This document shows, piece by piece, positions 11,281 through 57,965 of a DNA stretch of 64,000 nucleotides. Under the pieces are notes generated by a model. That model saw nothing but the letters and a program-made list of their open reading frames with translations. It made no database searches and was not told the DNA's origin. Position numbers and translations under genes: made by a program. Within the stretch, counting starts at the first letter, position 1, and every line of letters starts with the position of its first letter. Source of the DNA: Flavobacterium aestivum (GTDB lineage Bacteria; Bacteroidota; Bacteroidia; Flavobacteriales; Flavobacteriaceae); contig NZ_CP113977.2 of assembly GCF_026870175.2 (NCBI RefSeq), forward strand, positions 1,302,001 through 1,366,000, given 5' to 3'.

Positions 11281-11344
11281 GTTGTCGGTTGCTGGTTGTT
11301 GGTTGTTGGAAATCTCCATCAACTTTCAACTTTCAACCATCAAC
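11281..11344. repeat. Inverted heptamer array, GTTGNNN type (site A)
   Basis: Four consecutive heptamers of form GTTGNNN (11281-11308) are followed by an 8-nt gap and four heptamers of form NNNCAAC (11317-11344), the inverted orientation. The GTTG core is fixed in all eight; the other three bases vary (TCG, CTG, TTG, TTG; then ATG, AAA, AAA, ATG read inverted). A transcript would form an imperfect hairpin just upstream of the rng start. Confidence 0.85.
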
Positions 11345-11396
11345 TTTTCAGTAAGGATGGATTAAACAATAATTTAACAGGTATTGTACCCGGGAG

Positions 11397-11472
11397 GGAT
11401 TTTAGACTGCAGATTTAAGATTTTAGACTGCAATTTTAGACTGCCGTCTGATAACTGAATTCTGCGTACTGT
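11397..11472. repeat. Heptamer array, AGACTGC/NNNCTGN type (site B)
   Basis: Eleven consecutive words, ten of 7 nt and one of 6 nt. AGACTGC occurs three times (11404, 11425, 11438), alternating with AGATTTT-like words, then four words with CTG at positions 4-6 (CGTCTGA, TAACTGA, ATTCTGC, GTACTGT). It lies between the 30-residue basic gene and site A. Confidence 0.8.
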
Positions 11473-11494
11473 TTTCCCAAATTTCAATGAACTT

Positions 11495-11530
11495 AAAAAA
11501 GAAAAAAGTAGTTTAAAACTACTTTTTCTT
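11495..11530 (-). terminator. Hairpin overlapping the end of the 30-residue gene
   Basis: AAAAAGTAGTTT and AAACTACTTTTT form a near-perfect stem that includes the TAG stop at 11519-11521. On the minus strand it is followed by T-rich sequence, so it is a likely terminator for the HU and basic-protein genes. Confidence 0.7.
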
Positions 11531-11611
11531 TTTGTGACGGTTAGCTCTCGCTCTTTTTTTACGTTTGTGAGTCGCTACCTTATGTCTCTTTCTTTTTTTA
11601 CCACTTGGCAT
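11519..11611 (-). CDS. 30-residue highly basic protein, probably ribosome-associated
   Basis: A short gene reading MPSGKKRKRHKVATHKRK and then Lys/Arg-rich sequence to the end. About two thirds of the 30 residues are Lys, Arg or His. It starts with ATG and ends within a terminator hairpin. I recognise this sequence as strongly conserved in Flavobacteriia. Its size and charge resemble small ribosomal proteins such as Thx/bS22 or bL36; a Bacteroidetes-specific ribosomal protein is a reasonable guess but not shown here. It lies 31 nt downstream of HU and is probably cotranscribed with it. Confidence 0.8.
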   Translation of the reverse strand: MPSGKKRKRHKVATHKRKKRARANRHKKKK

Positions 11612-11642
11612 ATCTTATAGATTTTATGATTAATTAATAGTG

Positions 11643-11933
11643 TTATTTTGCTTCGTTGTTAATCTTTACTCCTTCTACAAATACTTTTGCAGGTTTGAAA
11701 GCAGGAATGTTGTGTGCAGGAATTTTAATTGTGGTATTTTTAGAAATATTTCTTCCTGTTTTTTCAGCTCTAGTTTTTACTATAAAGCTTCCAAAACCTC
11801 TTAAGTAAACATTGTCACCAGTTTCAAGTGAGTTCTTTACTTCGTTCATAAAAGTCTCAACTGTTGCTTGAACATCTCCTTTTTCTAGACCTAATTTTTC
11901 TGAAATTTTCGCTACGATATCTGCTTTCGTCAT
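11643..11933 (-). CDS. hup: HU/IHF-family DNA-binding protein
   Basis: A 96-residue nucleoid protein that bends DNA as a dimer. It has the N-terminal helix pair (MTKADIVAKISEKLG), the GFGSF turn near residues 46-50, and the conserved arm segment around RNISKNT and PAHNIPAFKP, which inserts in the DNA minor groove. Length is typical for HU. A strong Bacteroidetes promoter lies upstream (11977-12008), and the basic 30-residue gene follows in the same direction. Confidence 0.95.
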   Translation of the reverse strand: MTKADIVAKISEKLGLEKGDVQATVETFMNEVKNSLETGDNVYLRGFGSFIVKTRAEKTGRNISKNTTIKIPAHNIPAFKPAKVFVEGVKINNEAK

Positions 11934-11976
11934 TTTCTTTCCTTTTTATTATGTTGTAATAATTTTTTTGAGTTTG

Positions 11977-12008
11977 CAAATATATGAATTTAAAAAAGAA
12001 TTAATCAA
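11977..12008 (-). promoter_or_regulatory. Promoter of hup
   Basis: Minus strand: TATATTTG at 11984-11977 and TTG at 12008-12006 with a 21-nt spacer, matching the Bacteroidetes consensus. Confidence 0.75.
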
Positions 12009-12066
12009 CCTAATTCGTTAAAATTTAATTACATAAACAATTACTTTTGTTTTTTAATATTTTACA

Positions 12067-13104
12067 ATGAATTTTTATAACACACTAAATAAGTGGTACT
12101 TACGAAACAAAAGAGAGCTACCTTGGCGAAATACTACCGATCCTTATGCCATTTGGCTCTCCGAAATCATGCTACAACAGACTAGAGTTGTGCAAGGATT
12201 ACCTTATTTTTTGTCTTTTACTACAACTTTTCCAACAGTTTTTGATCTGGCAAACGCGAGCGAAGAGCAAGTTTTAAAACTTTGGCAAGGTCTTGGCTAC
12301 TATTCTCGAGCTCGGAATTTGCATAAAACTGCCCAAATTGTAGCTTTTGAAATGTCAGGAAAATTTCCGGATAATTATATCGACTTATTAAAATTAAAAG
12401 GAGTTGGAGAATACACCGCTGCAGCAATTGCATCTTTCTCTTATAATGAATGTGTTCCCGTTGTAGACGGAAATGTATTTAGGGTTTTGTCACGCTATTT
12501 TGATTTGGAAACCGATATTGCTCAAGCTTCTGCTAAAAAAGAATTTGCTGCTTTGGCTTTTGAGCTTATACCAAAAGATAATCCGGCACAATTTAATCAA
12601 GCCATCATGGAGTTTGGTGCGCTGCAATGCGTTCCCAAAAGTCCCAATTGTTCTATATGTGTATTCAATAATAGTTGTGCTGCTTTGCAAAAAAACAAAG
12701 TGGATCAATTGCCTGTAAAATCAAAGAAACTCAAAGTTAGAAATCGTTACTTTAATTATATAGTAGTCGAAGATGATTTGCAGAATACCATTATTCAGAA
12801 ACGCACCGCCAAAGGAATTTGGCACAATTTATATGAATTTCCATTAATTGAAACCAATAAGGAAGAAGATTTTGATTGTATTTCAATGCATATTCAAAAT
12901 GGCTTTTTTCAGAAAAATGAGATTGTGAGTTTGTTGGAGTACAATACCGAAAGTATTATCCATAAACTCTCACACCAACATTTGTATATCAAGTTTTGGA
13001 AAGTCAGTCTAAAAGGAGCAGTCGAAAACGGAAAGGACTTAGAAATCATTAAGACTTTTCCGTTTCCTATAGTGATTCATGATTTTATAGAAGAGAAGCT
13101 GTAA
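12067..13104 (+). CDS. mutY: A/G-specific adenine glycosylase
   Basis: Base-excision enzyme that removes adenine mispaired with 8-oxoguanine. In 345 residues it has catalytic Glu33 (LSEIMLQQTR), the helix-hairpin-helix LKGVGEYTAAAIASF (about 110-124) and catalytic Asp134 (PVVDGNVFR). The 4Fe-4S ligands are Cys188, Cys195, Cys198 and Cys204 in C-x6-C-x2-C-x5-C spacing. The C-terminal part (about 225-345) is the NUDIX-like domain that reads 8-oxoG. All key residues are present. It lies divergent to hup and upstream of ssb-gldE-gldD, an order I recall for gliding flavobacteria. Confidence 0.96.
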   Translation: MNFYNTLNKWYLRNKRELPWRNTTDPYAIWLSEIMLQQTRVVQGLPYFLSFTTTFPTVFDLANASEEQVLKLWQGLGYYSRARNLHKTAQIVAFEMSGKFPDNYIDLLKLKGVGEYTAAAIASFSYNECVPVVDGNVFRVLSRYFDLETDIAQASAKKEFAALAFELIPKDNPAQFNQAIMEFGALQCVPKSPNCSICVFNNSCAALQKNKVDQLPVKSKKLKVRNRYFNYIVVEDDLQNTIIQKRTAKGIWHNLYEFPLIETNKEEDFDCISMHIQNGFFQKNEIVSLLEYNTESIIHKLSHQHLYIKFWKVSLKGAVENGKDLEIIKTFPFPIVIHDFIEEKL

Positions 13105-13154
13105 AGGCATTTTGAAGAAGTTCTCGATGGTCAGCTTTATCTATTATAATATGA

Positions 13155-13253
13155 GTCATTGCGAGGTACGAAGCAATCTCATTCACTATATTCATCACGA
13201 TGGTTCAGTTTGCTTGCTCTTACTAGTAAGATTGCTTCGTACTTCGTAATGAT
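13155..13253. repeat. REP/MITE-like imperfect inverted repeat
   Basis: An arm of about 26 nt at 13155-13180 (core TTGCGAGGTACGAAGCAAT) is matched by its complement at 13228-13253 with about four mismatches, around a 47-nt interior. This cattgcgag-type element is a common dispersed repeat in Bacteroidetes genomes. No ORF is inside. It is the main content of the 239-nt gap between mutY and the gene at 13344. Confidence 0.8.
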
Positions 13254-13343
13254 TTTGTGTGTTTGCTAATGATAAATTAAAATGAAACCGTATTGCTTGT
13301 TAAGTAGGATATTTCTATCTTTCAAACTTAAAAACACTTCGCC

Positions 13344-14516
13344 TTGAAAAAAATAATTCTCCTATTAAGTTTGCATTGTGGGTTACTGACATTTGCGCAG
13401 ACTAATCCTTTAATTGTTTCAGCAAATGTTGTTTTGCCAAAAGACACTTTGATTGCTAAACAATTGGTAAAATCATTAAATGGCTTTTTGGGTCAAAAGG
13501 AAAGTCCTAACAAAGAAAATGTTTTTGTTTTAAAAGAAGACTTGCTTGAAACCTCAATCCTTCTTGATGAAATGAAAGGAATCGAGAAAAGCGGGAAATA
13601 CAAAGACAATAACTTCTATAAAGGTTATTTGACTAATGTGGTACAAATTGACAAGAGTAATTTCATTATACAGTTCTCTTATATAGGAGTAAACGAAAAT
13701 ATCCCTATTCTGGGTGCTAGTTTTGAAGTTTTGGCAAAATATATGGATGATAAATTCTATTTCTTGTCACCTTTACAACGCAACACTCTTTCTTGGCAAA
13801 CCAAAAAAATAGGAAATTGCACCTTTCACTACAAAACTAATTTGAACACAAAAGTCGCTGGCGAGTATGTAAAGTATGTGGCTCTTTTTGATAAAAAGTT
13901 AGAGGCTCCACAAGATAATATAGTGTGGTATGGCTGTAATGATTTGCCAGACGTTTTGCAAAACATTGGGGTTTTGTATAAACTAGAATACAATGGCCGT
14001 TCCGTAAGTACTTTTAATGCCAATGAAAACAAAACTACTTTGTTGGTTAATGGTACTTATAATACAAGTTTTAATGGTTTTGATCCGCATGATTTATGGC
14101 ACGAAAGAGCAAGAAATGCTATTCCAAGAAATATGATTAACAAGCCGGTTGATGAAGGCTGTGCATATCTTTATGGGGGAAGTTGGGGAATAAGTTGGTC
14201 GAAAATCTTGAAAATGTTCAAAGAAAAAGTGGCTTCTAATCCTAATACAGATTGGCTTGCTTTGTTTAATGGAAAGCAATTGAATTTTGGAGAAAGTATG
14301 GAAAAGCATTTAATGGCAGATTATGCTGTAAATGCATTGATAGTTGAGAAAATAGAAAAGGAAAAGGGTTTTACAGCGGTCAAAGAATTACTTAGTTGTG
14401 GCAAATATGAGAAAGGGAATGAAAATTATTTTAAAGTACTAGAGAAATTAACGGGTATCAGTAAATCTAATTTTAATGAAAATGTTTGGGCTTTGATTAA
14501 AAAAAGCGGGAAGTAG
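13344..14516 (+). CDS. Exported protein with HDxxH and EGxA motifs, possible degenerate zincin
   Basis: A 390-residue protein starting at TTG (no in-frame ATG nearby gives a signal peptide), with a clear signal peptide of about 19 residues ending FAQ. Around residues 249-271 the sequence H249-D-L-W-H253-E and then DEGCAYLYGG resembles a gluzincin active site (HExxH plus downstream EGxA), with Asp in place of the catalytic Glu. No family is recognised. It stands alone between a REP-like repeat and ssb. Secreted or periplasmic location is likely; peptidase activity is speculative. Confidence 0.7.
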   Translation: MKKIILLLSLHCGLLTFAQTNPLIVSANVVLPKDTLIAKQLVKSLNGFLGQKESPNKENVFVLKEDLLETSILLDEMKGIEKSGKYKDNNFYKGYLTNVVQIDKSNFIIQFSYIGVNENIPILGASFEVLAKYMDDKFYFLSPLQRNTLSWQTKKIGNCTFHYKTNLNTKVAGEYVKYVALFDKKLEAPQDNIVWYGCNDLPDVLQNIGVLYKLEYNGRSVSTFNANENKTTLLVNGTYNTSFNGFDPHDLWHERARNAIPRNMINKPVDEGCAYLYGGSWGISWSKILKMFKEKVASNPNTDWLALFNGKQLNFGESMEKHLMADYAVNALIVEKIEKEKGFTAVKELLSCGKYEKGNENYFKVLEKLTGISKSNFNENVWALIKKSGK

Positions 14517-14603
14517 TTACGTTTACTGCTTAAGGTAGTTTAGTGCTGTTCATAGGTGTAATTATTTATGGAAATCCAATAAAAATAGTTTTCAAAAATA
14601 ATG

Positions 14604-14611
14604 TACCTTTG
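14604..14611 (+). promoter_or_regulatory. Putative -7 element for ssb-gldE-gldD
   Basis: TACCTTTG fits TAnnTTTG 19 nt before the ssb start. No good -33 TTG is seen. Confidence 0.5.
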
Positions 14612-14630
14612 ATAGAAATACCACTAAATC

Positions 14631-15071
14631 ATGAACGGAACATTAAATAAAGTAATGCTTATAGGCTATCTGGGAGATGATGTTAAAATGCATTATTTTG
14701 ATGGAGGCAATTGCATCGGAAGATTTCAATTGGCAACAAATGAAGTATACGTCAATAAAACCACCAACGAAAAAATCACTTCTACAGAGTGGCATAATCT
14801 CGTAGTACGCAATAAAGCTGCAGAAATTTGCGAAAAATATCTTTCGAAAGGAGATAAGATATATGTAGAAGGACGAATAAAATCAAGACAATGGCAAGCC
14901 GAAGACGGCTCTGTCAAACATACTGTAGAGATTCAAGTGACAGAATTTACATTTTTGACAACAAAAAAAGAAGCTGAAAGCAATAAAGCATCAGATCCTT
15001 CGGGAACTGCAAAAAATACTAACTTTGACGCTCAAAATAAAGACTTGCCGATCAATGATCTGCCGTTTTAA
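14631..15071 (+). CDS. ssb: Single-stranded DNA-binding protein
   Basis: A 146-residue SSB. The OB fold covers residues 1-110, with typical text (NKVMLIGYLGDD, GRFQLATNE, EWHNLVVRNKAAE, YVEGRIKSRQW). A flexible linker leads to the acidic C-terminal tip (INDLPF) that recruits repair and replication proteins. It is the first gene of a likely operon with gldE and gldD; the gap to gldE is 23 nt. Confidence 0.96.
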   Translation: MNGTLNKVMLIGYLGDDVKMHYFDGGNCIGRFQLATNEVYVNKTTNEKITSTEWHNLVVRNKAAEICEKYLSKGDKIYVEGRIKSRQWQAEDGSVKHTVEIQVTEFTFLTTKKEAESNKASDPSGTAKNTNFDAQNKDLPINDLPF

Positions 15072-15094
15072 TTGTTTAACTAATTTATTATAAT

Positions 15095-16390
15095 TTGGAC
15101 CCAGAGCCCAGTTTAGAGATTACGTCCCTTATAGATGTCAATATAGTTTTTGGCTTTATAGGCATAATTATATTGTTATTTTGCTCTGCAATAGTTTCCG
15201 GGGCCGAAGTAGCGTTGTTCTCTTTGTCGCAAAAAGATATCGATGAAACGATTCAGGATAATGCATCAAAAGGGAAAATCATTTCTCAGCTTTTAGAAAA
15301 ACCAAAAAAATTACTCGCCACATTACTTGTTGCTAATAATTTTATCAATATAGGTGTGGTAATCTTGTTTTCATCTGTAGGGAAGGATTTGTTTGCAGCG
15401 GTAAATTCTCCAGTTTTAAAGTTTATTTTAGAAGTAATTTTGGTGACTTTTTTATTGTTGCTTTTTGGCGAAGTATTACCAAAAGTATATGCCAGTAGAA
15501 ACAATGTGAAATTTGTCAAGTTGATTGCTTATCCAATTTCGGGATTAGACAAAATATTATCGCCAGTAAGTTTGCCCATGCGCTCTGCAACAATTTATTT
15601 GCAAAACAAATTAGGAAAGCAAAAAACCAATTTCTCTGTTGATCAATTATCGCAAGCATTAGAATTGACTGCCACAGATGAAACCTCAACAGAAGAACAA
15701 AAAATTCTGGAAGGAATTGTCTCTTTTGGAAATACAGATACTAAGCAAGTAATGAGTCCGAGAATTGATGTTTTTGCCTTAGAGATAACAGAAACATTTG
15801 AGACTATTTGTCCTAAAATAATAGAAAAAGGATTTTCTAGAATTCCAATTTACCGAGACAACATAGATCAAATAGAAGGAATCTTATTTGTCAAGGATTT
15901 ATTGCCATATATTAATAGTAAGGAATTCGATTGGACTACCTTGATACGAGAGCCTTTTTTCGTTCCGGAAAATAAAAAGCTAGATAATTTGCTCAAAGAT
16001 TTCCAGAGTATGAAAAGCCATTTGGCGATTGTGGTTGATGAGTATGGAGGAACTTCAGGATTGGTTTCACTAGAAGATGTTATCGAGGAGATTGTGGGTG
16101 ACATCAGTGATGAGTTTGATGACGAACCTGTTAATTATTCTCAAATAGACGATAAAAATTATATTTTTGAGGGCAAAATAAATCTTAAGGATTTCTACAG
16201 GATTATTGAGGTTGATGAGGATTTATTCGAAGAAAAAAAGGGAGAAGCAGAGACGTTGGCTGGGTTTATTCTTGAAATTTTGGGTGGTTTCCCCAAAAAA
16301 GGACAAAAAATAACTTTTGAAAACTGCCTATTTATCATTGAATCTGTAGATCAAAAACGTATTAAACAAATAAAAGTAACGATTGAATAA
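15095..16390 (+). CDS. gldE: Gliding motility-associated membrane protein GldE (CNNM/CorC type)
   Basis: A 431-residue inner-membrane protein. A DUF21/CNNM transmembrane domain covers about 15-200, with the first helix around VFGFIGIIILLFCSAIV. A CBS-domain pair follows at about 210-335 and a CorC/HlyC C-terminal domain at about 345-431. The start is TTG at 15095, giving MDPEPSLEI. Its position directly upstream of gldD identifies it as GldE. In F. johnsoniae GldE is linked to gliding through GldD; the molecular role of this CNNM-like protein is not settled. It ends 7 nt before gldD. Confidence 0.93.
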   Translation: MDPEPSLEITSLIDVNIVFGFIGIIILLFCSAIVSGAEVALFSLSQKDIDETIQDNASKGKIISQLLEKPKKLLATLLVANNFINIGVVILFSSVGKDLFAAVNSPVLKFILEVILVTFLLLLFGEVLPKVYASRNNVKFVKLIAYPISGLDKILSPVSLPMRSATIYLQNKLGKQKTNFSVDQLSQALELTATDETSTEEQKILEGIVSFGNTDTKQVMSPRIDVFALEITETFETICPKIIEKGFSRIPIYRDNIDQIEGILFVKDLLPYINSKEFDWTTLIREPFFVPENKKLDNLLKDFQSMKSHLAIVVDEYGGTSGLVSLEDVIEEIVGDISDEFDDEPVNYSQIDDKNYIFEGKINLKDFYRIIEVDEDLFEEKKGEAETLAGFILEILGGFPKKGQKITFENCLFIIESVDQKRIKQIKVTIE

Positions 16391-16397
16391 AATTAAA

Positions 16398-16961
16398 ATG
16401 CTTAAAAAAACGACTGTAATAGTTCTATTTTCTATATTATTTTTTGCTGTGTTTGGATGTAAAAATGATGTATTACCCAAACCATCTAGTTATTTGCGTC
16501 TGGATTATCCGGAAGCAGAGTATGTAGATTTTAAGGGAAATTGCCCTTTTGCTTTTGAAATGAATTCTAAAGCAATCATCAAAGAAGATAAAGATTGTGG
16601 GTTTTCCATCAGCTACCCTAAGATGAAAGCAACTATTTATCTAACCTATAAACCAGTAAATAATAATATTAAAAAATTATTGAAAGACGCTCAAAAATTG
16701 ACTTACGAGCATGTTATTAAAGCTGATGATATTTTAGAACAGCCTTTTATAAATCCAAATAATAAGGTGTACGGAATGTTTTATCAAGTAGATGGAAACG
16801 CGGCAACTAACTCCCAGTTTTATGTTACTGATAGTATTAAGCATTTTGTAACAGGTTCGGTTTATTTCTATGCAAAACCTAATTTTGATTCTATTATGCC
16901 AGCTGCTAGTTATATCAAAAATGATATGCAACGCCTTATGGAAACCATGAAGTGGAAGTAA
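16398..16961 (+). CDS. gldD: Gliding motility lipoprotein GldD
   Basis: A 187-residue lipoprotein. ATG at 16398 is chosen over an in-frame TTG at 16383 that overlaps gldE. The signal ends in the lipobox AVFGC, followed by KNDVLPKPSSYLRLDYP, typical of GldD. GldD is one of the Gld proteins known to be required for gliding and type IX secretion in Flavobacterium, and is thought to be membrane-anchored on the periplasmic side. It is last in the operon, followed by a strong terminator. Confidence 0.94.
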   Translation: MLKKTTVIVLFSILFFAVFGCKNDVLPKPSSYLRLDYPEAEYVDFKGNCPFAFEMNSKAIIKEDKDCGFSISYPKMKATIYLTYKPVNNNIKKLLKDAQKLTYEHVIKADDILEQPFINPNNKVYGMFYQVDGNAATNSQFYVTDSIKHFVTGSVYFYAKPNFDSIMPAASYIKNDMQRLMETMKWK

Positions 16962-16983
16962 TTCCCAGTTCAGAAATATATAA

Positions 16984-17022
16984 TAAAAAAAAGCATTCGT
17001 TTTTAGCGAATGCTTTTTTTTA
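16984..17022. terminator. Bidirectional terminator between gldD and the HMA lipoprotein gene
   Basis: A perfect stem AAAAAAAGCATTCG with its complement and a short loop, flanked by A and T tracts, works on both strands. Confidence 0.9.
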
Positions 17023-17036
17023 TAGGATCAGTCAGC

Positions 17037-30732: not shown

Positions 30733-30877
30733 GATTTAAGATTGTAGATTAACGATTTAAGAATTAGCGATTTAGAATTATATCATTCATCAAGTTTTGA
30801 TGTAGATCTGAAATTGTTTTTTTAAGAACGTGGTTATAAATCTAAAATCAGAAATCGTTAATCTTCAATCAGCAATC
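30733..30877. repeat. Inverted heptamer array, GATTNNN type (site C)
   Basis: Left arm: four GATTNNN heptamers in perfect register at 30733-30760 (GATTTAA, GATTGTA, GATTAAC, GATTTAA), then a decayed continuation. Right arm: six consecutive NNNAATC heptamers at 30836-30877, the inverted orientation. Within this, 30740-30758 and 30852-30870 are complementary apart from about one mismatch. The right arm ends 2 nt before the phosphopantetheinyl transferase start codon. Confidence 0.87.
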
Positions 30878-30879
30878 AA

Positions 30880-31536
30880 ATGCCTCTTTTTAAAATAATA
30901 AATCTTAATTCTTCAACTCAAATTCTCGTTTGGGAAATAACCGAGTCTTATCAAGAACTTTTTGAAGCTGTTGTTCTTAATGAAAGCAACATGAGCCGAT
31001 TAAAAGGAATGAAATCTGAAATACACCAACGAGCTTTTCTGAGCGTGCGTAAACTGTTTCAAGAAGTGGGTTATACGGATTTCGATTTGTATTATGACGA
31101 ATTTGGAAAACCACATTTGCATGATGGAAAGCATATTTCGATTACACATTCCCATCAATTTTCGGCTATAATTTTAAGTGACAAAGTTGTAGGAATTGAT
31201 ATAGAATTGCAACGAGAAAAAATAATCCGAATTGCCGATAAATTTGCCGATACTGAATTTTCTTATTTGATACCGAATAAAAAAATAGAATATATTAGGA
31301 AATTGACGGTTATTTGGGGTGCAAAAGAAGCTATTTTTAAAATTAGAAATGAAAAAGGAATTAGTTTCAAAGACCATATTAAAGTAAATGCTTTCGAAAT
31401 GAATGATATGCAAGCTAAAACAGAACTTCATTTTGATGATATAATCAAAGATTTTAATATTTGTTTTGAAGAATTTGGATCAAATGATATTAATGGCTTT
31501 AAACAAAATTTTACTCTTGTTTACGCTTTTGAATAA
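30880..31536 (+). CDS. 4'-phosphopantetheinyl transferase superfamily protein
   Basis: A 218-residue enzyme that moves phosphopantetheine from CoA to a carrier-protein serine. The Sfp/AcpS-type motifs are present: GIDIE at 105-109 (Mg ligands) and WGAKEA at 146-151. The length and two-lobed layout fit the Sfp-like single-chain class more than trimeric AcpS. No polyketide or NRPS cluster is nearby, so the acceptor is unknown. The start codon is right after heptamer array site C. Confidence 0.9.
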   Translation: MPLFKIINLNSSTQILVWEITESYQELFEAVVLNESNMSRLKGMKSEIHQRAFLSVRKLFQEVGYTDFDLYYDEFGKPHLHDGKHISITHSHQFSAIILSDKVVGIDIELQREKIIRIADKFADTEFSYLIPNKKIEYIRKLTVIWGAKEAIFKIRNEKGISFKDHIKVNAFEMNDMQAKTELHFDDIIKDFNICFEEFGSNDINGFKQNFTLVYAFE

Positions 31537-49181: not shown

Positions 49182-49249
49182 GATTTAAGAATTGAAAGAT
49201 TGAAAGATGGTTTAAATACAAGATTTTTTAATCTTTCAATCTTTCTATC
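49182..49249. repeat. Inverted octamer array, RATTNNNN type (site D)
   Basis: Left arm: three consecutive octamers at 49182-49205 (GATTTAAG, AATTGAAA, GATTGAAA). Right arm: three inverted octamers at 49226-49249 (TTTTAATC, TTTCAATC, TTTCTATC). It fills the space between the thiC stop and the downstream gene. Confidence 0.83.
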
Positions 49250-51094: not shown

Positions 51095-51223
51095 ATTGAA
51101 AGATTGAAAGATTGAAAGATTGAAAGATTGAAAGATTGAAAGATTGAAAGATTGAAAGATTGAAAGATTGAAAGATTGAAAGATTCGAATCGTTAAATTC
51201 TTAAATCTTCCAATTTTTAAATT
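51095..51223. repeat. Octamer array with eleven identical units (site E)
   Basis: ATTGAAAG is repeated eleven times without error at 51095-51182. Then come four inverted, diverged octamers at 51192-51223 (GTTAAATT, CTTAAATC, TTCCAATT, TTTAAATT). It occupies the gap between thiC and thiS. The perfect part is a microsatellite that can change length by slippage; the layout as a whole matches sites D and F. Confidence 0.93.
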
Positions 51224-51432: not shown

Positions 51433-51496
51433 TCCTTTTTGAATTTAGTATAAGTTATACTTTAGGAATGGCTATAGGAGTACGCAATGGTACACG

Positions 51497-51586
51497 GAAG
51501 TCATCTTACTTTTCCCTACGCTAGTATGAACTAGATCAGGTTCAGAGGGTAAAATCTCAGCCTACAATTGTAGACACCCCTAAAGT
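51497..51586 (-). promoter_or_regulatory. TPP riboswitch of the thiamine operon
   Basis: On the minus strand: TTTAGGGGTGTC, CTGAGA (51560-51555), TACCCTCTGAACCTGATC and TAGCGTAGGGAAAAG, the thi-box core. It lies 65 nt upstream of thiS and should repress the eight-gene operon when thiamine pyrophosphate is abundant. Confidence 0.96.
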
Positions 51587-51592
51587 TTGGAG

Positions 51593-51650: not shown

Positions 51651-51700
51651 GTCTTGATATTTTTGTGATATTTCTGAAAGGCAAATTTGTCTTTTGGTAA

Positions 51701-52264
51701 CTAATTTCTCTTCCAGCAATCGGCTATATGGTCATCTACCATACCAGTGGCTTGCATGTGGGCATATACTACTGTTGAACCAACAAATTTGAACCCACGT
51801 TTTTTTAAGTCCTTACTAATAGCGTCAGACAGGGGAGTTGTGGCTTGAACTTCACTTAAACTTTTTCGATTGTTTATAATAGGTTTTCCATCTACAAAGC
51901 CCCAAATGTATTTGGAAAAACTGCCAAATTCATCTTGCACTTTCATAAAGGCTATAGCGTTTGAAATTGCGGAACGTATTTTTAATTGGTTACGAATGAT
52001 GCCTGGGTCCTGCATTAAATCCTGAACTTTGTCTTCGGAATAGCTAGCGATTTTTTTATAATCGAATGCATCAAAAGCTACTCTGAAATTTTCTCTTTTG
52101 TTGAGTATCGTGATCCAGCTCAATCCTGCCTGGAAAGTTTCCAGTATTAGAAATTCAAATAACTTCGAATCTTCATAAACGGGAACACCCCATTCTTCAT
52201 CATGGTATTTTTGATATAATTCACTCGAATTACACCAGCCGCATCTTACAAGTTCTTTTTTCAT
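51701..52264 (-). CDS. tag: DNA-3-methyladenine glycosylase I
   Basis: A 187-residue base-excision glycosylase. It has RCGWCN at the N-terminus, YHDEEWGVPVYED, FEFLILETFQAGLSWITILNKR and the zinc snap residues: Cys8, His21, and the final DDHIADCW. The catalytic Glu is in LILETFQAGLSW. Full length. It starts inside the stop codon of the lipoprotein gene upstream (1-nt overlap). Confidence 0.96.
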   Translation of the reverse strand: MKKELVRCGWCNSSELYQKYHDEEWGVPVYEDSKLFEFLILETFQAGLSWITILNKRENFRVAFDAFDYKKIASYSEDKVQDLMQDPGIIRNQLKIRSAISNAIAFMKVQDEFGSFSKYIWGFVDGKPIINNRKSLSEVQATTPLSDAISKDLKKRGFKFVGSTVVYAHMQATGMVDDHIADCWKRN

Positions 52265-52980
52265 TATTTATTTATCTCCCAGTGGTAGCCTTTTACTGAC
52301 GGTATGTAGGCTGATCCGTTATTAAGTATTAATTCTGTGTATATTTTTTTGTTGTATTTGATGCCGATAGCTCCCCCGGAAACATAGGTTTTGTTTTTTT
52401 TGAAGGTGAAAATCATTGTGTCATTTTCGAATTCGGCATCCGAAACTTTTTCTACTAGCCAAGTAGATCCCCAATTGAAATATAATTTATTTGGACCAAC
52501 ACAGGTTACATGTTTAACGAGGTCTACTGCTTCTTTTGGGAATTTGTATTTTTGAATCAGTTCACTCTTAGTGTATGATTTACCCATTTCAGCATTTCTT
52601 AATAAATTTCGCAAGGGTGAGTTGATGATAACTTCTGCATTTTTTTCTGTTATGACATGAGTTAATGGGACATGTGATAGGTTAGGGTTGCTATCTTGAT
52701 TGCTTTGAAATTGAGAAGTATTAGAATTTGGAATTTGTCTTTGTATAGCAGTGGCCAAACCTGAATCTTCGTGTGAACTATCTGTTTCTGGGTCTGATAC
52801 TGATACTGATTCTGATTCTGTTGATTTTTTTATAGTATTATTTGTTTTTGTGGTTGTATTGCTAGGTATAGCAGTTGTAGCTTCTGGATAATCCATTTCT
52901 TTTTCTTTGGGCTCGTTTCTTCCACAACTAATTAGTAAAGCAAGAAATATAAAAGAAAATAGTGTTTTTAAATTCTTCAT
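52264..52980 (-). CDS. Lipoprotein of unknown function
   Basis: A 238-residue lipoprotein with lipobox LISC. A low-complexity region rich in Ser, Thr, Asn and Asp (about 30-110) precedes a compact C-terminal domain (about 115-238: SPLRNLLRNAEMGKSYTKSELIQKY, KLYFNWGSTWLVEKV, GGAIGIKYNKKIY). No family is recognised. The overlap with tag suggests coexpression but no functional link is evident. Confidence 0.75.
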   Translation of the reverse strand: MKNLKTLFSFIFLALLISCGRNEPKEKEMDYPEATTAIPSNTTTKTNNTIKKSTESESVSVSDPETDSSHEDSGLATAIQRQIPNSNTSQFQSNQDSNPNLSHVPLTHVITEKNAEVIINSPLRNLLRNAEMGKSYTKSELIQKYKFPKEAVDLVKHVTCVGPNKLYFNWGSTWLVEKVSDAEFENDTMIFTFKKNKTYVSGGAIGIKYNKKIYTELILNNGSAYIPSVKGYHWEINK

Positions 52981-53060
52981 GGTCAGTGTTTAATGCTTTT
53001 GTTCTCAAATTTAACTTTTTTTAAATTCTAATGAAACCAAATATGGAAAAATGCAAAAAA

Positions 53061-53089
53061 AAATCCCAAACATTTAATGAATGGGATTT
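53061..53089 (-). terminator. Terminator after the Ppx/GppA-like gene
   Basis: AAATCCC/GGGATTT stem, with a T-rich stretch on the minus strand. Confidence 0.6.
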
Positions 53090-53121
53090 AATTATTCTAA
53101 GAATACGGTTATTAGATAAGT

Positions 53122-54180
53122 CTAATTGATTTGTTTTACACCTTTAGCGTTATCAAATACATAACTAACTAACCAAGCAATCTGACCTTGTTTAGCAAAA
53201 TAGATCTTTTTATTTTGGATGTTAGGAATAACTTCAAGAGAAGTCTCCAAAAGGTTAAAAGCAGCTATTAATGATTTTTGCTGGTATGTTTTTAATACTT
53301 TTTGCATTTCTACATTACTTTCAGCACCTGTTACAAATCTTTGATAATTGTTTTCTGCAATTGTTCTGATTGCTAAAATGTCATCATATTGTACTTGAGT
53401 AAAGTTTTCTTCTGCTTTTACTCCAGTTGATAAGGTGTAGAAAGCCCAAGCTGCACCACCTGAGATGTAAACATTACTTTTTTCTTGAGATTCAGGTCTA
53501 CTAATGTACATTTTTTTGAAACTCTCTCTCATAGAAGGCAAGTAGTCAAATAAGTTTTCACTGAATTCAAATATTGTTTTTTGTTTACATTTTTTATTGA
53601 TAAGCTCAGTTAATGTAACAGTTCCTAAATCACATGAAATTGGGAAAAATACTGAAGAACCATTGATTTCTTTGGCATAACCTCCTTTTGTATTTCCTCC
53701 TCCAATGTCAATAATTACTGAACTTAAATAATTTTTAGGAGGTATACATCCTCTTAAAAGTAATTTAGCTTCAAGTGATGAAGAAATGATTTCAATTTTT
53801 TTGTTTGTTAATTCTTTAATTTTTGCCACTAAGTCATTAGTGTTGTTTGCTAAACCTACACCTGAAGAAGCAACAATGAAAATGTTTTTGTCTTCAATTC
53901 GGTATTCAGAAAGCATTTTTTTGTAGTTGTTGTAAACTACTGCACCAGCTTTGTCAATATCTTCTTGCAATAATGCACCGTCTATTCCAATACCAGCTGC
54001 GATACCTACGTTTTCAGTCCAAAACTCTTTTACATCGTAGGTGTTTCTTTTTAAATTTTCGACGTCAAGGACAGTCATTTTTATTCCTTTACTTCCTATC
54101 TCAATTCCGCCATATAGCTGGGCTTGTGCTGAATAGGAAAGAATAAAACAAGCTATCAAAATGTAAATTTTTTCTTTCAT
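53122..54180 (-). CDS. Exported Ppx/GppA-like protein
   Basis: A 352-residue ASKHA-fold protein related to exopolyphosphatase/pppGpp phosphatase, but with a signal peptide (YILIACFILSYSAQAQ). Phosphate-binding loops are YGGIEIGSKGIKMTV (23-37) and VIIDIGGGNTKGGY (155-168). The catalytic Glu region reads SSLEAKLLLRG (135-144), comparable to the usual G-x-EEARL. The C-terminal part lacks the HD domain of Ppx. The family is normally cytosolic, so an exported form would act on periplasmic polyphosphate or an unknown phosphate ester. Confidence 0.82.
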   Translation of the reverse strand: MKEKIYILIACFILSYSAQAQLYGGIEIGSKGIKMTVLDVENLKRNTYDVKEFWTENVGIAAGIGIDGALLQEDIDKAGAVVYNNYKKMLSEYRIEDKNIFIVASSGVGLANNTNDLVAKIKELTNKKIEIISSSLEAKLLLRGCIPPKNYLSSVIIDIGGGNTKGGYAKEINGSSVFFPISCDLGTVTLTELINKKCKQKTIFEFSENLFDYLPSMRESFKKMYISRPESQEKSNVYISGGAAWAFYTLSTGVKAEENFTQVQYDDILAIRTIAENNYQRFVTGAESNVEMQKVLKTYQQKSLIAAFNLLETSLEVIPNIQNKKIYFAKQGQIAWLVSYVFDNAKGVKQIN

Positions 54181-54334
54181 GTTCTTAATTGTTTGGGGTT
54201 TTTTGTTGTTTGCAAATCTATATTAAAAATATATGATTTCCTTTTTTTATTTACTTTTTTGTGTAACTTTTTTTTAAAGCTGATTTGTTATTTAATTGTT
54301 ATTAAAATGTTTATTTTTTTTAACTTATTGATTG

Positions 54335-54364
54335 TTGGTTGATTTAAAAAAAAATCTATTTTTG
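54335..54364 (+). promoter_or_regulatory. Promoter of the MFS transporter gene
   Basis: TTG at 54335-54337 and TATTTTTG at 54357-54364 with a 19-nt spacer. Confidence 0.8.
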
Positions 54365-54398
54365 CCAAGATAGAAAATTTTTTGCCCCAAAAAAACAA

Positions 54399-55643
54399 AT
54401 GATTATGATAAAAAAATACCTCGACAATTTTAAAGATTTTCCAAAAGAGATTTGGATACTTACTTTAATTACATTCATCAACCGTGCAGGGACTATGGTG
54501 ATACCTTTCTTGTCAAAATACATGAAAGAAAATTTGCAATTCACGTACAGTCAAATTGGCTGGGTTATGGTTTTCTTTGGAGTGGGTTCTATAATAGGAA
54601 CTTGGCTTAGTGGTAAATTATCTGATAAAATTGGCTTTTATAAAGTCATGGTGTTCAGTTTGTTTACCAGTGGTATAGTGTTTATTTTGTTGCAATATGC
54701 AACCACTTTTGAAGCACTTTGTGTAGGTATACTTGTATTGACTACTGTTGCAGATATGTTTAGACCAGCTATGCTTGTATGTTTAAAAACGTTTACTAAA
54801 AAAGAAAACAGAGCTCGTGCTTTTGCATTAACGCGTGCAGCGGTTAACTTAGGATTCCTTTTCGGGCCAGTATTAGGTGGTTTGATTATTATGCAAATGG
54901 GTTATGAGTACATCTTTTATGTAGATGGAGCAACCTGTATATTAGCAATAATTGTTTTTATGCTTTTTGTTAAGGAAAAAGCGTTGCCTGTGAAGTTGAA
55001 AAAGCACCATGATGGTTATAAAAAGGTTTCAATAAGAAAAGATCGCCCTTTTATGTTACATTTATTGATCTGTATGATAACTGGGATACTATTTTTTCAA
55101 ATTTTCACCACATTACCATTGTATCATAAAGAACGTTTCAATATGTCGGAATTTGATAGTGGGTTACTTTTGAGTTTAAATGGACTTCTTATTTTGCTTT
55201 TTGAGCTTCCTATTGTGAATTATGTTATTAAAAATAAAATAGATAATCATAGAGTTATTTTTATTGGACTTTTGTTTATGTCTTCTAGCTTCTTGCTTTT
55301 GTTAATGCCTTGGGAAGCTACTTTGATTCCTATGATGTTGTTTATGACATTTGGTGTAATGTTGACTTTCCCATTTGCTAATTCATTTGCAATGGGGAGA
55401 TCATATGAATCGCATGAAGGGAAATATATGGCTGCTTTTACAATGAGTTATAGTTTTGCTCATATTTTGAGCGCTAAAAGCGGAATGGAAATCATTCAAA
55501 GGTCTGGATATGATTCTAACTGGATATTTATGGCAGCTCTAGGATTGGTTGGTTCTTTACTAGTGTTTAAGTTGTTTGCTATGGTTGAGAAAGAAGAAGT
55601 AGATACGGATAAGAAAGTAGATGCTATTTTTCTTGATGAATAA
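54399..55643 (+). CDS. Major facilitator superfamily transporter
   Basis: A 414-residue membrane protein of 12 helices. The loop 2-3 motif is GTWLSGKLSDKIGFYK, the MFS signature, and the fifth helix region has ALTRAAVNLGFLFGPVLGG, an antiporter-type motif C. ATG at 54399 is used; ATG at 54405 is equally possible. Family members export drugs or metabolites by proton exchange; the substrate is not predictable. A terminator follows at 55720. Confidence 0.92.
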   Translation: MIMIKKYLDNFKDFPKEIWILTLITFINRAGTMVIPFLSKYMKENLQFTYSQIGWVMVFFGVGSIIGTWLSGKLSDKIGFYKVMVFSLFTSGIVFILLQYATTFEALCVGILVLTTVADMFRPAMLVCLKTFTKKENRARAFALTRAAVNLGFLFGPVLGGLIIMQMGYEYIFYVDGATCILAIIVFMLFVKEKALPVKLKKHHDGYKKVSIRKDRPFMLHLLICMITGILFFQIFTTLPLYHKERFNMSEFDSGLLLSLNGLLILLFELPIVNYVIKNKIDNHRVIFIGLLFMSSSFLLLLMPWEATLIPMMLFMTFGVMLTFPFANSFAMGRSYESHEGKYMAAFTMSYSFAHILSAKSGMEIIQRSGYDSNWIFMAALGLVGSLLVFKLFAMVEKEEVDTDKKVDAIFLDE

Positions 55644-55971
55644 AACGGGTCTGTTTTAATTTTATTTAGATTATAGAAACACTTAATCCTGAAAAGGGTT
55701 TTATTAGAATAAATTTTAAGCGGTAGTAACATTTTGTTTACTGCCGCTTTTTTTGTTTAATAAGGGCTGGTTTTTGCTTGTTTTTTGATAGTATTTTGAA
55801 AGGAGGATAATGTTTTAATCTTAATTAAGAAATGCTCTTGTTGTGTGTTGTAACAGCGTTTCGTGTAGCACTTGTATTTGAATTTATTTGTCGACCTAAA
55901 ATGTGATTTAATGAAAAAATCCCATCTCGTAATAAACAAGATGGGATTTTATATTTTAAAACTAAATTAGA
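55644..55971. other. Intergenic region with two terminators
   Basis: AAGCGGTAGTAA/TTACTGCCGCTT (55720-55752) with a T tract ends the MFS gene. AAAATCCCATCT/AGATGGGATTTT (55917-55950) ends tsf on the other strand. No gene is seen between. Confidence 0.85.
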
Positions 55972-56934
55972 TTATCCTAAAGTAACTCTTTTGAAACCTG
56001 AGATTTCAACGTTGAATCCTTTTACATAATCACCTACTTTTTTACTGTCATCTTTGATGAAGTTTTGATCTAATAAAGCTTTCTCTTGATCTAAAGTTGT
56101 ATTATCAGAAATGAAACGCTGAATTTTTCCTGGAATAATTTTATCCCAAATTTGTTCTGGTTTTCCTTCGGCTTTTAATTCAGCTTTAGCATCTTCTTCA
56201 GCTTGTTTGATAACTTCTTCAGTTAATTGAGAGAAAGAAATGTATTTAGGAACATTTTTTAAAGTTTTTCCTAAACGTTTTGCCTCTTCATTTTCTTTTT
56301 CGATTATTGCAATACGAGCAGCAAGTTCAGAAGCAACGAAAGATGGGTCAAAATCTTTGTAAGATAATGTGTCAGCTCCCATAGAAGCAACTTGCATAGA
56401 GATGTCTTTAGTTAAAACGTCACCATTAGCAATTGGTGCAGAAATTGCAGTTAATGCAGCAATCTTGTTAACGTGAACATAAGATCCTACGAAAGCGCCT
56501 TCTAAAATTTCAAAGCCACCGATTTCGATTTTTTCACCGATAACACCAGTTTGCTCGATTAATTTTTCAGCAACAGTAATTCCGTTGAAATCTGAAGCTA
56601 AAAATTCCTCTTTTGAAGAAAAGTTAATAGCTCTTTCAACTAATTCTTTAGCTAAAGTTACGAAAGCTTCGTTTTTACCTACGAAATCTGTCTCACAGTT
56701 TAAAGTGATGATAGCTCCTTTAGTTTTGTCAGCATTAATAAAAGAAACAGCAGCTCCTTCTGAAGACTCACGGTCAGAACGGTTAGCAGCAACTTTTTGT
56801 CCTTTTTCTCTAAGGTTTTGTATAGCTTTATCGAAATCTCCATCAGCTTCAACTAAAGCTTTTTTACAGTCCATCATTCCGGCACCTGTAGTTTGTCTTA
56901 ATTTATTTACGTCTGCAGCAGTAATTGTTGCCAT
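55972..56934 (-). CDS. tsf: Elongation factor Ts
   Basis: A 320-residue guanine-nucleotide exchange factor for EF-Tu. ATG at 56934 (MATITAADVNKLRQTTGAG) is the family start; an in-frame ATG at 56979 lies in the heptamer array. The TDFVGKNEAF motif and the N-terminal UBA-like domain with MMDCKKAL are present. It follows rpsB; the gap is filled by heptamer array site G. Confidence 0.97.
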   Translation of the reverse strand: MATITAADVNKLRQTTGAGMMDCKKALVEADGDFDKAIQNLREKGQKVAANRSDRESSEGAAVSFINADKTKGAIITLNCETDFVGKNEAFVTLAKELVERAINFSSKEEFLASDFNGITVAEKLIEQTGVIGEKIEIGGFEILEGAFVGSYVHVNKIAALTAISAPIANGDVLTKDISMQVASMGADTLSYKDFDPSFVASELAARIAIIEKENEEAKRLGKTLKNVPKYISFSQLTEEVIKQAEEDAKAELKAEGKPEQIWDKIIPGKIQRFISDNTTLDQEKALLDQNFIKDDSKKVGDYVKGFNVEISGFKRVTLG

Positions 56935-56963
56935 AATATTTTGAATTTTAATGTTAAAAGTAA

Positions 56964-57056
56964 AAATTCCAATCTTCAAATCCCAAATTCCAACGTTATC
57001 AGATGGTTAAAAATCTGATTTTGGAATTTGGAATTTAAATTTGGAATTTAAAATTT
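56964..57056. repeat. Inverted heptamer array, AAATTCC/GGAATTT type (site G)
   Basis: Left arm: four consecutive heptamers at 56964-56991 (AAATTCC, AATCTTC, AAATCCC, AAATTCC). Right arm at 57023-57056: GGAATTT, GGAATTT, a 6-nt AAATTT, GGAATTT, AAAATTT. The arms are complementary in kind. It fills the rpsB-tsf gap. Confidence 0.83.
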
Positions 57057-57059
57057 GAT

Positions 57060-57839
57060 TTATTCTTCAGTTGCTGGAGCCTCGTTAGCTTCAACTGCTG
57101 GAGCTTCAGCTTCAGCAACAACTTCATTAGCATCAGTTTCTTTATCAGAAGTTCTGTTTGCAAGACCATCGATAATTGAAGTAGTTACTAAAGATAAAAT
57201 TTTATCAATTGATTTAGAAGCATCATCATTTGCAGGGATAACATAATCTACTTCACGTGGATCAGAGTTAGTATCAACCATTGCGAAAACTGGAATGTTT
57301 AATTTTTGTGCTTCTTTTATTGCGATGTGTTCAGCTTTGATATCTACTACGAACAATGCAGCAGGTAGTCTAGACATATCTGCGATTGATCCTAAGTTTT
57401 TCTCTAATTTAGCACGAAGACGATCAACTTGCAAACGCTCTTTTTTAGATAGAGTGTTGAAAGTACCATCTTTCTTCATTTTATCAATAGAAGACATTTT
57501 TTTAACTGCCTTTCTGATAGTTACGAAGTTAGTTAGCATTCCACCTGGCCATCTTTCAGTGATGTAAGGCATGTTTGCAGCTTTTGCTTTATCAGCAACG
57601 ATGTCTTTTGCTTGTTTCTTGGTAGCAACAAATAATATTTTTCTACCTGATGCAGCGATTTTTTTCAAAGCTTCGTTAGCTTCTTCGATTTTTGCTGCAG
57701 TTTTATATAGATTGATAATGTGTATACCATTACGTTCCATATAAATGTAAGGAGCCATATTTGGGTCCCATTTTCTAGTCATGTGTCCAAAATGAACACC
57801 TGCTTCTAGTAATTCTTTTACTTCTACTTTGTTTGACAT
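57060..57839 (-). CDS. rpsB: 30S ribosomal protein S2
   Basis: uS2, 259 residues, beginning SNKVEVKELLEAGVHFGH and containing the conserved KWDPNMAPYIY, RWPGGMLTN and FVVDIKAEHIAIKEA blocks. The last 25 residues are an Ala/Glu-rich acidic tail. It is the third gene of the rplM-rpsI-rpsB-tsf group, separated from rpsI by 243 nt of repeat-rich DNA. Confidence 0.97.
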   Translation of the reverse strand: MSNKVEVKELLEAGVHFGHMTRKWDPNMAPYIYMERNGIHIINLYKTAAKIEEANEALKKIAASGRKILFVATKKQAKDIVADKAKAANMPYITERWPGGMLTNFVTIRKAVKKMSSIDKMKKDGTFNTLSKKERLQVDRLRAKLEKNLGSIADMSRLPAALFVVDIKAEHIAIKEAQKLNIPVFAMVDTNSDPREVDYVIPANDDASKSIDKILSLVTTSIIDGLANRTSDKETDANEVVAEAEAPAVEANEAPATEE

Positions 57840-57884
57840 TTTTGTACTAGTTTACGTTCTGTTGATTAGCAATGTCCCGTTTTA

Positions 57885-57965
57885 GATTTAATGATTTAAA
57901 AATTCAAAGAGTTAAAAATTTTAGAGTCTAATTTTTTTAATTATTCAATTTTTAATCTTTTAATC
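57885..57965. repeat. Inverted octamer array, RATTNNNN type (site F)
   Basis: Five left octamers at 57885-57924 (GATTTAAT, GATTTAAA, AATTCAAA, GAGTTAAA, AATTTTAG). Four right inverted octamers at 57934-57965 (TTTTTAAT, TATTCAAT, TTTTAATC, TTTTAATC). It lies 46 nt upstream of rpsB. A TGTCTTGTA/TACAAGACA hairpin (58051-58075) follows rpsI in the same gap. Confidence 0.82.

What the first reader, a model, noticed from the sequence alone, without database searches (positions are those of the whole stretch)
11281..57965. A family of intergenic arrays built from 7- or 8-nt words with a fixed core and variable remainder, mostly as inverted arms
At least seven gaps share one architecture (11281-11344, 11397-11472, 30733-30877, 49182-49249, 51095-51223, 56964-57056, 57885-57965). 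Each is a run of 3-11 contiguous words of constant length. At a given site every word keeps a tetranucleotide (GTTG, GATT/AATC, CTG/AGA, GGAATTT) and varies in the other three or four bases. Usually a second run follows in reverse orientation, so the RNA would fold. The core changes between sites but period and layout are kept, which random AT-richness does not explain. Cyanobacterial STRR heptamers are the nearest analogy known to me; I know no named Bacteroidetes element like this.
Basis: partly seen in the sequence, partly recalled or inferred. Interest (0 to 1): 0.85.

Follow-up and report, generated by a model that had tools for sequence, protein, structure and literature searches.

The report
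Gene-edge arrays of short DNA words
In Flavobacterium, many gaps between genes carry runs of 7- or 8-letter DNA words with a fixed core and a changing spacer, often one run at each edge of the gap facing inward; at least one forms a conserved RNA hairpin, but what keeps the cores fixed elsewhere is unknown.

Summary
All seven sites have excess 7/8-nt self-match (p 0.003 or less, 1000 shuffles each). In 28% of the genome (1.264 Mb, 718 gaps), phased 4-mer cores exceed shuffles at period 7 (67 vs 11.8) and 8 (51 vs 17.2); the other periods from 5 to 12 give 0.7-1.7 times shuffled. Inverted phased arms occur in 38 gaps, against 0-2 in shuffles.

New here:
- In paired sites CTAAG precedes CTTAG, 29 of 29.
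- Phased CTAAG runs give 0 hits in 1.11 Mb of predicted ORFs and 63 in 145 kb of gaps.
- CTAAGNNN is largely restricted to the genus.
- Word families replace each other at orthologous gaps.

At rpsB-tsf, 80 of 80 loci keep a stable hairpin although stems are built from different words, with G-U over A-C 143:43 in the three array classes: RNA-level selection. Other array gaps show no such asymmetry. Upstream of ackA, columns set by one genome's CTTAG cores match in 1134 of 1240 comparisons, spacer columns in 272 of 528.

Nearest parallel: Xanthomonas heptamer arrays. A new variant of a known kind; general function not proven.

The parts
11281..11347 (.). 7-nt word pair: GGTTGTT-type arm (11281-11309) and CAACTTT-type arm (11319-11347)
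11397..11472 (.). mixed 7-nt words TTTAGACTGC / AGATTTA with period 21 (3 x 7), CTG-type words to the right
   Evidence: no thrice-repeated 4-mer core
30733..30877 (.). 7-nt GATT arm (left) and AATC arm (right) in a divergent gap; right arm ends next to the start codon at 30880
49182..49249 (-). 8-nt GATTGAAA hairpin in the gap after the 607-aa gene (thiC by recall)
   Evidence: fold z -6.5
51095..51223 (-). perfect (ATTGAAAG)11.4 array (51095-51185) plus imperfect complementary arm, in the thiS-thiC gap (names by recall)
   Evidence: other words or none in relatives
56935..57059 (-). AATTCC / GGAATTT hairpin between rpsB and tsf (names by recall); the likely tsf ATG lies inside the listed ORF, after 15 residues
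   Evidence: fold z -6.7 for 56980-57059; 80 orthologous gaps
57840..58082 (-). leader-like region upstream of rpsB; the array 57885-57965 occupies one variable peripheral stem between AAATG and CATTGC
   Evidence: no Rfam family above threshold here
57885..57965 (-). 8-nt GATTAAAA / TTTTAATC arms inside that region
   Evidence: inverted-repeat p 0.051

Best explanation
These are gene-edge word arrays. Tandem 7- or 8-nt words arise by short-unit duplication (replication slippage favouring 7-8 nt; inferred). They survive only outside coding sequence and often stand as two inward-facing runs, one after the upstream boundary and one before the downstream boundary of a gap (shown). Where both arms are in one transcript their cores can pair and give an interrupted stem-loop. 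At some gaps this stem-loop has been taken over as a working RNA element: at rpsB-tsf the hairpin, followed by a U-rich tract and therefore probably an attenuator or mRNA-processing stem, is conserved across Flavobacterium while the words that build it are exchanged (conservation and pairing shown; attenuation inferred). Repeated words in both arms would let the stem re-pair in another register after a word is gained or lost, making word-built stems an easy evolutionary route to an intergenic hairpin (inferred). For the CTAAG family an additional, sequence-specific constraint holds the core; its agent is unknown.
For: Excess at periods 7 and 8, 67 vs 11.8 and 51 vs 17.2; inverted phased arms in 38 gaps vs 0-2. 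CTAAG detector: 63 hits in gaps, 0 in 1.11 Mb of ORFs; both CTAAG arms in one gap 8 times vs 0.24 expected. rpsB-tsf: z below -2 in 80 of 80 loci with stems of ATTCC (51), AGATT (10), ATTAYGA (3) or other (16); G-U vs A-C 102:34, 29:9, 12:0, 14:10; sense fold more stable than antisense in 48 of 51, 9 of 10, 3 of 3, 6 of 16. Two-sided compensatory changes at 5 of 23 pairs in 24 of the 51 ATTCC sequences and at 1 of 18 pairs in 12 sequences (the 10 AGATT ones plus 2 classed 'other'). Orthologous gaps hold different words or none: pta-ackA is 1 nt in 3 genomes and array-filled in others. In F. psychrophilum, 8 of 12 VNTR loci vary between isolates (PMC4501049, passages), as word gain and loss predicts.
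Against: Outside rpsB-tsf the stems show no transcript-strand preference: 23 G-U to 33 A-C in 17 paired CTAAG gaps, 31 to 34 in 29 other array gaps; sense more stable in 7 of 17 and 10 of 29 (co-directional). The 80 rpsB-tsf loci are related, so the counts are not independent. Slippage alone predicts more identical neighbours, yet identical adjacent CTAAG spacers are rarer than chance (6 of 241 vs 15.9). Slippage does not explain inward polarity or the conserved core. 30 of 140 CTAAG runs of two or more words lie nearer the 'wrong' edge of their gap. Gaps can hold different families at their two edges (L280, L289). The F. psychrophilum loci tested did not change over 12 passages, so slippage is not fast there.
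Confidence: 0.45

Rival explanations
1. The arrays, above all CTAAGNNN, are phased binding sites of a sequence-specific RNA- or DNA-binding factor that acts at gene boundaries (translation start, 3' end, or insulation); each word family would have its own reader.
For: Upstream of ackA in 9 genomes that share the gap, columns defined by the CTTAG cores of one genome match in 1134 of 1240 comparisons, spacer columns in 272 of 528, with ackA third codon positions at 0.663; the compared rows were not required to have words. A first run over 13 genomes gave 0.88 vs 0.425 but selected words by their core, so its core value is inflated. Ten of 13 such gaps have no CTAAG. Spacers take 47 forms in 342 while core positions 2, 4 and 5 are 98-99% constant over 443 words (detection allowed at most one core mismatch, so part of this is by construction, but position 3 varies to 14%). 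Side rule: CTAAG after stop 45, before start 2; CTTAG before start 31, after stop 14. Largely genus-restricted: 37 of 101 genomes in the genus, 0 of 12 in other genera of the family.
Against: No candidate factor found; several unrelated word families share one layout; spacing to the start codon is variable; two genomes outside the order also have 10 matches each (G155, G331); core conservation between species could partly reflect re-creation of arrays.
Confidence: 0.22
2. Neutral or mildly selfish slippage products: heptamer/octamer minisatellites tolerated only in gaps, with inverted arms made by template switching, and no function except where later recruited.
For: Heptamers are reported over-represented among bacterial repeats, with a polymerase-slippage hypothesis (PMC4679880 and PMC4692102, passages). 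Strand-symmetric mismatches. Perfect arrays exist (51095-51185). Turnover of families.
Against: Core constant while spacer changes; adjacent identical spacers avoided; arms of a CTAAG pair are not copies of each other; fixed order 29 of 29 in paired sites.
Confidence: 0.25
3. Mobile element ends (REP/BIME-like or MITE-like), with inward arrays as transposase-binding terminal repeats.
For: Fixed inward polarity is what terminal repeats show; genome dispersal; two sites share near-identical GTTTCA arms.
Against: Y1 transposase (PF01797) does not follow the arrays: G065 (155 matches), G004 (51), G066 (69) and G042 (15) have none. Distances between arms vary (7-175 nt). Other transposase families were not tested.
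Confidence: 0.04
4. Translation barriers: words carry stop codons and a period that is not a multiple of three puts them in all frames next to genes.
For: 149 stops in 59 co-directional arrays vs 108.3 in shuffles (max 126). The next CTAAG core is 4 (mod 8) nt after the stop codon in 16 of 45 arrays, so the stop TAA(G) reads as the first word.
Against: The antisense strand is as rich (160), so there is no sense preference. AAAGTCG, AATTCCA and similar words carry no stop on reading the letters. Other families show no clear stop-codon phase, with small numbers.
Confidence: 0.04

Closest known systems
GGGANTN heptamer arrays of Xanthomonas and GGGGA(C/T)T arrays of Nostoc (Rehm et al. 2015, PMC4692102; section 10 read, passages)
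   Same: Heptamer words with conserved positions (1-4 and 6) and variable rest, most often four units, 89-93% intergenic, nearer to one ORF (average 28 nt), 70 and 75 cases of two repeats in convergent orientation (which I read as inward). [quoted passage not shown]
   Different: One G-rich word able to form G-quadruplexes; here many AT-rich words, 7 or 8 nt, without G-tracts. Core-versus-spacer comparison at orthologous gaps and exchange of word families were not in the parts I read.
Heptamer VNTR loci of Flavobacterium psychrophilum (PMC4501049, passages)
   Same: Same genus; mostly intergenic; 7-8 nt units overlapping the words found here (AAATCTA, AATCTGA, AAAGTTT, AATTCAT, AATAGGC, TTTCTAAT).
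   Different: Treated as typing markers; no inward pairing, core/spacer structure or RNA role in the passages seen.
TAACTGA repeats of Beggiatoaceae, some cyanobacteria and five Bacteroidetes (MacGregor 2015, PMC4679880, passages)
   Same: 7-nt direct repeats in gaps, most within a few nt upstream of start codons; proposed binding site for a post-transcriptional regulator.
   Different: One exact heptamer, related heptamers rare, one inverted repeat reported; here variable spacers and inward pairs at both gap edges.
Cyanobacterial STRR heptamers (recalled; only search listings seen)
   Same: Tandem heptamers in gaps.
REP/BIME elements of enterobacteria (recalled)
   Same: Intergenic inverted units that can form RNA stems.
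   Different: Longer conserved palindromes linked to Y1 transposases; no such link here.

Membership tests
Bacterial heptamer tandem repeats / VNTR | tandem unit of 7 (or 8) nt, over-represented in gaps | tested here: met
Bacterial heptamer tandem repeats / VNTR | near-identical units with slippage signature (identical neighbours in excess) | tested here: not met
   CTAAG spacers 6 of 241 identical neighbours vs 15.9 expected; AGATT 18 of 97 vs 23.5. Some arrays are perfect, e.g. 51095-51185, and small families (TTATG 12 of 20 vs 9.3, AATTC 5 of 11 vs 2.4) lean the other way
Bacterial heptamer tandem repeats / VNTR | copy-number variation between strains of one species | not testable with these tools
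   one genome per species held; published for F. psychrophilum
Xanthomonas-type convergent heptamer arrays | core plus variable positions, a few units, inward pairs, intergenic near an ORF | tested here: met
Xanthomonas-type convergent heptamer arrays | G-tracts able to form G-quadruplex | tested here: not met
   words such as CTAAGNNN and AGATTNN have no G-tract
TAACTGA start-codon repeats | exact TAACTGA unit | tested here: not met
   not among the words listed
REP/BIME with RAYT | co-occurrence with Y1 transposase | tested here: not met
Intrinsic terminator or attenuator hairpin | stable RNA stem with compensatory change, followed by U-tract | tested here: met
   rpsB-tsf only:
Intrinsic terminator or attenuator hairpin | RNA 3' ends at the site | not testable with these tools
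   no RNA-seq on hand

The most novel reading that the evidence does not exclude
Flavobacterium carries a boundary-marking code: phased 5-nt cores (CTAAG every 8 nt, and other families every 7-8 nt) placed after stop codons and, as the complement, before start codons, read by an undescribed sequence-specific factor, and able to become RNA stems where the two arms share a transcript. The same convergent architecture in Xanthomonas with a different, G-rich word would then be a convergent or ancient class of gene-edge element whose common feature is phasing and polarity and not quadruplex formation.
Probability: 0.2. Interest if true: 0.88.

Novelty: new variant of a known kind. Interest (0 to 1): 0.62.

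Why it matters
Heptamer repeats are reported as over-represented in bacteria, and the reason offered in the passages I saw is polymerase slippage. Here the words follow a rule (fixed core, freer spacer, inward polarity, gene edges) that holds over several unrelated words, and a similar layout is published for Xanthomonas with a G-rich word, so an explanation by G-quadruplexes cannot be general. The rpsB-tsf gap offers a natural series in which one RNA hairpin is rebuilt from different words. The ackA upstream arrays are a direct test for a core-binding factor. Both can be tested in laboratory Flavobacterium.

Tried and rejected
Rejected or weakened: (1) chance from AT-richness. (2) Inverted duplication of one arm into the other for CTAAG: spacers not complementary beyond swapped arms. 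(3) A general RNA hairpin function: no wobble asymmetry in other array gaps, although rpsB-tsf shows it. (4) RAYT/Y1 mobilisation. (5) All-frame stop codons as purpose: no strand preference. (6) Gene-level rather than gap-level coupling: for CTAAG 0 seen, 0.2 expected, too few to judge; with a noisier all-family detector both were above expectation, gaps 8 vs 2.7 and genes 10 vs 5.2, so coupling across a gene is not excluded. (7) Divergent gaps as proof against one-transcript hairpins: promoter consensus hits (pattern recalled) were too few to decide. (8) The reversed pattern is a poor control for AGATT, because reversed AGATT is TTAGA, itself in the words. (9) Gene calls were a simple greedy ORF rule, so some starts are wrong (for example tsf), which blurs start-edge distances. 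(10) The first core-versus-spacer count before ackA chose words by their core; I replaced it by a count in which only the reference row is chosen so.

Literature: searches in the open PMC library listed no paper that I recognised as describing these Flavobacterium arrays as inward pairs; lists were capped and subscription papers are mostly not held (the 2007 repeat survey of Mrazek and colleagues was asked for by a DOI from memory and not held; it is used only through passages of other papers). For PMC6749651, PMC4501049, PMC4679880, PMC6847099 and PMC10931766 I saw passages; for PMC4692102 passages and one section.
Full report
SETTING. The window is G000:C1:1302001-1366000 of a 4,580,707-bp single-contig genome; the best matches to its rpsB product in named genomes are mostly titled Flavobacterium. 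Gene names such as rpsB, tsf, thiC, pta and ackA are recalled from the protein sequences; only the TPP riboswitch was named by a tool.

OBSERVATION. All seven sites were read and tested: lag-7/8 self-match beats shuffles of each site at p 0.003 or less, and other lags stay low. Lags 7, 8, 14, 16 and 21 stand out; lag 15 (7 vs 0.1) and lag 10 (5 vs 0.4) are also raised. Phased 4-mer cores occur at period 7 67 times against 11.8 in shuffles and at period 8 51 times against 17.2; the other periods from 5 to 12 lie between 0.7 and 1.7 times shuffled. Thirty-eight gaps have two inverted phased arms; five shuffled sets gave 2, 1, 0, 2 and 0. Samples of 200 kb from six relatives show a clear excess in one, G005 (9 vs 2.2 at period 7), weaker or none in the rest.

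ANATOMY. The lists show a limited vocabulary: CTAAGNNN and GATTGAAA (8 nt), AGATTNN, AAAGTCN, GTTTCAR, TTATGAR, AATTCCN, GCTTTAG and others (7 nt). CTAAGNNN is the clearest. In 101 distinct arrays (443 words) the core is C .91, T .98, A .86 (G .09), A .99, G .99; because detection allowed at most one core mismatch, part of this constancy is by construction. Spacers take 47 forms in 342, and neighbouring identical spacers are rare, 6 of 241 against 15.9 expected. In all 29 paired sites CTAAG stands on the left and CTTAG on the right. Other families show the same inward rule in the own sample: AGATT inward 50 to 7, AAGTC 22 to 1; TTCAA (6 to 10 against) and some others show none (a noisy detector).

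WHERE THEY SIT. The CTAAG detector gives 0 hits in 1.11 Mb of predicted ORFs and 63 in 145 kb of gaps. Both arms share one gap 8 times against 0.24 expected; the two sides of one gene share them 0 times against 0.2, which is too few to judge. Of 140 runs of two or more words, 110 lie nearer the expected edge (CTAAG left, CTTAG right) and 30 nearer the other (some loci overlap). For the 110, the outer end is a median 8.5 nt from a stop codon (64 runs, 19 of them at exactly 4 nt) or 20 nt from a start codon (46 runs). By gene end, CTAAG is after stop 45, before start 2; CTTAG before start 31, after stop 14; AATCT before start 24, after stop 10; AGATT after stop 10, before start 2 (part of these loci were fetched because they hold CTAAG, so the counts show side and not frequency). 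In 16 of 45 CTAAG arrays the gene's own stop TAA(G) is in register as the first word. This can mean growth from the stop codon or encroachment on it. By eye, arms flank an apparent ordinary terminator in convergent gaps L258, L281 and L293, and gaps with different families at the two edges exist (L280, L289). In that fetched set 19 of 31 CTAAG gaps are co-directional, 6 divergent, 6 convergent.

DISTRIBUTION. The three-word CTAAG pattern is in 37 of 101 genus genomes, up to 155 matches (both strands together) in one (G065); the reversed control is zero in 85 of 101 and reaches 22 matches in the rest. In a phylum sample it is in 20 of 296 genomes: 12 of the 18 genus members, 0 of 12 in other genera of the family, 8 elsewhere, two of which (G155, G331) have 10 matches. 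AGATTNN is in 70 of 101, but its reversed control is not independent.

EVOLUTION AT ORTHOLOGOUS GAPS. (a) rpsB-tsf, 80 loci, most titled Flavobacterium: stems of ATTCC words in 51, AGATT in 10, ATTAYGA in 3, other in 16. Of the 16, by eye, six are near ATTCC variants, two GATT-like, and five (L030, L061, L084, L085, L097) ordinary terminator-like hairpins. All 80 fold below z -2. On the transcript strand G-U exceeds A-C 102:34, 29:9, 12:0 and 14:10, and the sense strand folds better than the antisense in 48 of 51, 9 of 10, 3 of 3 and 6 of 16. In 24 of the 51 ATTCC sequences 5 of 23 consensus pairs show two-sided change; in 12 GATT-type sequences (10 plus 2 from 'other') 1 of 18. This is an RNA hairpin under selection whose building words are exchangeable. 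The loci are related, so the counts overstate independence. (b) Upstream of rpsB: a leader-like region keeps its flanks while one stem is either a short plain hairpin or an array of GATTGAAA, AAGCC, AAGTC or AAAAGTTT words in different species (read by eye, output cut in the middle). Some of these fillings do not look self-complementary. (c) pta-ackA, 28 usable of 29 loci (L335 mis-called): the gap is 1 nt in three genomes and array-filled in others. In 13 genomes with two or more CTTAG-type words before ackA, 10 have no CTAAG in the gap. In nine of these that I took as one clade, columns set by the cores of each genome in turn match in 1134 of 1240 comparisons with the other rows, spacer columns in 272 of 528; mean third-codon-position identity is 0.663. 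The earlier count, 0.88 vs 0.425 over 78 pairs, selected words by core in every row and is inflated. (d) thiS-thiC, thiC-thiE and nth-bcp also differ in word family between species (by eye).

RNA OR DNA. If stems were generally selected as RNA, wobble pairs should prefer G-U on the transcript. In co-directional gaps they do not: paired CTAAG 23:33, single CTAAG 19:14, other arrays 31:34, against 102:78 for gaps without arrays. A stricter run gave 20:16 for arrays and 35:12 for non-array gaps. The contrast with non-array gaps is thus clear in one setting and weak in the other. Within CTAAG, core variants that would wobble are as common in the arm where they would not. Spacers of the two arms are not matched. 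So most arrays look strand-symmetric, and rpsB-tsf is a case where one has become an RNA element.

MECHANISM. Shown: words, periods, edges, polarity, family exchange, RNA selection at one gap, core conservation before ackA. Inferred: birth by 7-8-nt slippage; hairpins as attenuator or processing stems; a reader for CTAAG. I put the mixed view (slippage-born arrays at gap edges, recruited as RNA stems where useful) at 0.45, a sequence-specific reader at 0.22 and pure neutrality at 0.25.

KNOWN RELATIVES. The published Xanthomonas GGGANTN arrays share core-plus-variable heptamers, convergent pairs and gene-edge position (PMC4692102, section 10) but are G-rich. F. psychrophilum VNTR units overlap the words seen here; 8 of 12 loci varied between isolates and none of the loci tested changed over 12 passages. 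TAACTGA repeats sit upstream of start codons in Beggiatoaceae. Flavobacterium johnsoniae initiates translation without Shine-Dalgarno sequences, helped by upstream adenines and low structure (PMC6847099, passages), which fits the A-run often seen between the arrays and ATG.

Noticed in passing
window 57840-58082 (-): Leader-like conserved region upstream of rpsB with no Rfam match above threshold in the window; flanking motifs recur in the Flavobacterium loci printed. Possibly an unlisted uS2 leader.
   Followed up: partly
window 5415-5554 and 6146-6269: Pairs of CCTAACAGGTTT..AAACCTGTTAGG palindromes flank one ORF; 8 of 9 CCTAACAGGTTT hits in 1.264 Mb (both strands) lie in the window.
   Followed up: partly
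window 13105-13343: CGAAGCAATC palindrome pair resembling a dispersed repeat; 7 hits in 1.264 Mb, 2 of them in the window.
   Followed up: no
window 51496-51591 (-): TPP riboswitch upstream of the thiS-thiC array gap.
   Followed up: no
window 11494-11620 (-): Short, apparently very basic reading frame beside the 11397-11472 array, possibly a small ribosomal protein gene (by eye).
   Followed up: no
L158:11238-11707: Heptamer words of the AAGCC / GGCTAAT type on both sides of a small ribosomal-protein-like gene (by eye).
   Followed up: no
G331 and G155 (same phylum, other families): Ten CTAAG three-word matches each outside the genus; of the ten listed for G331 six have identical spacers, a possible younger, slippage-like state.
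   Followed up: no
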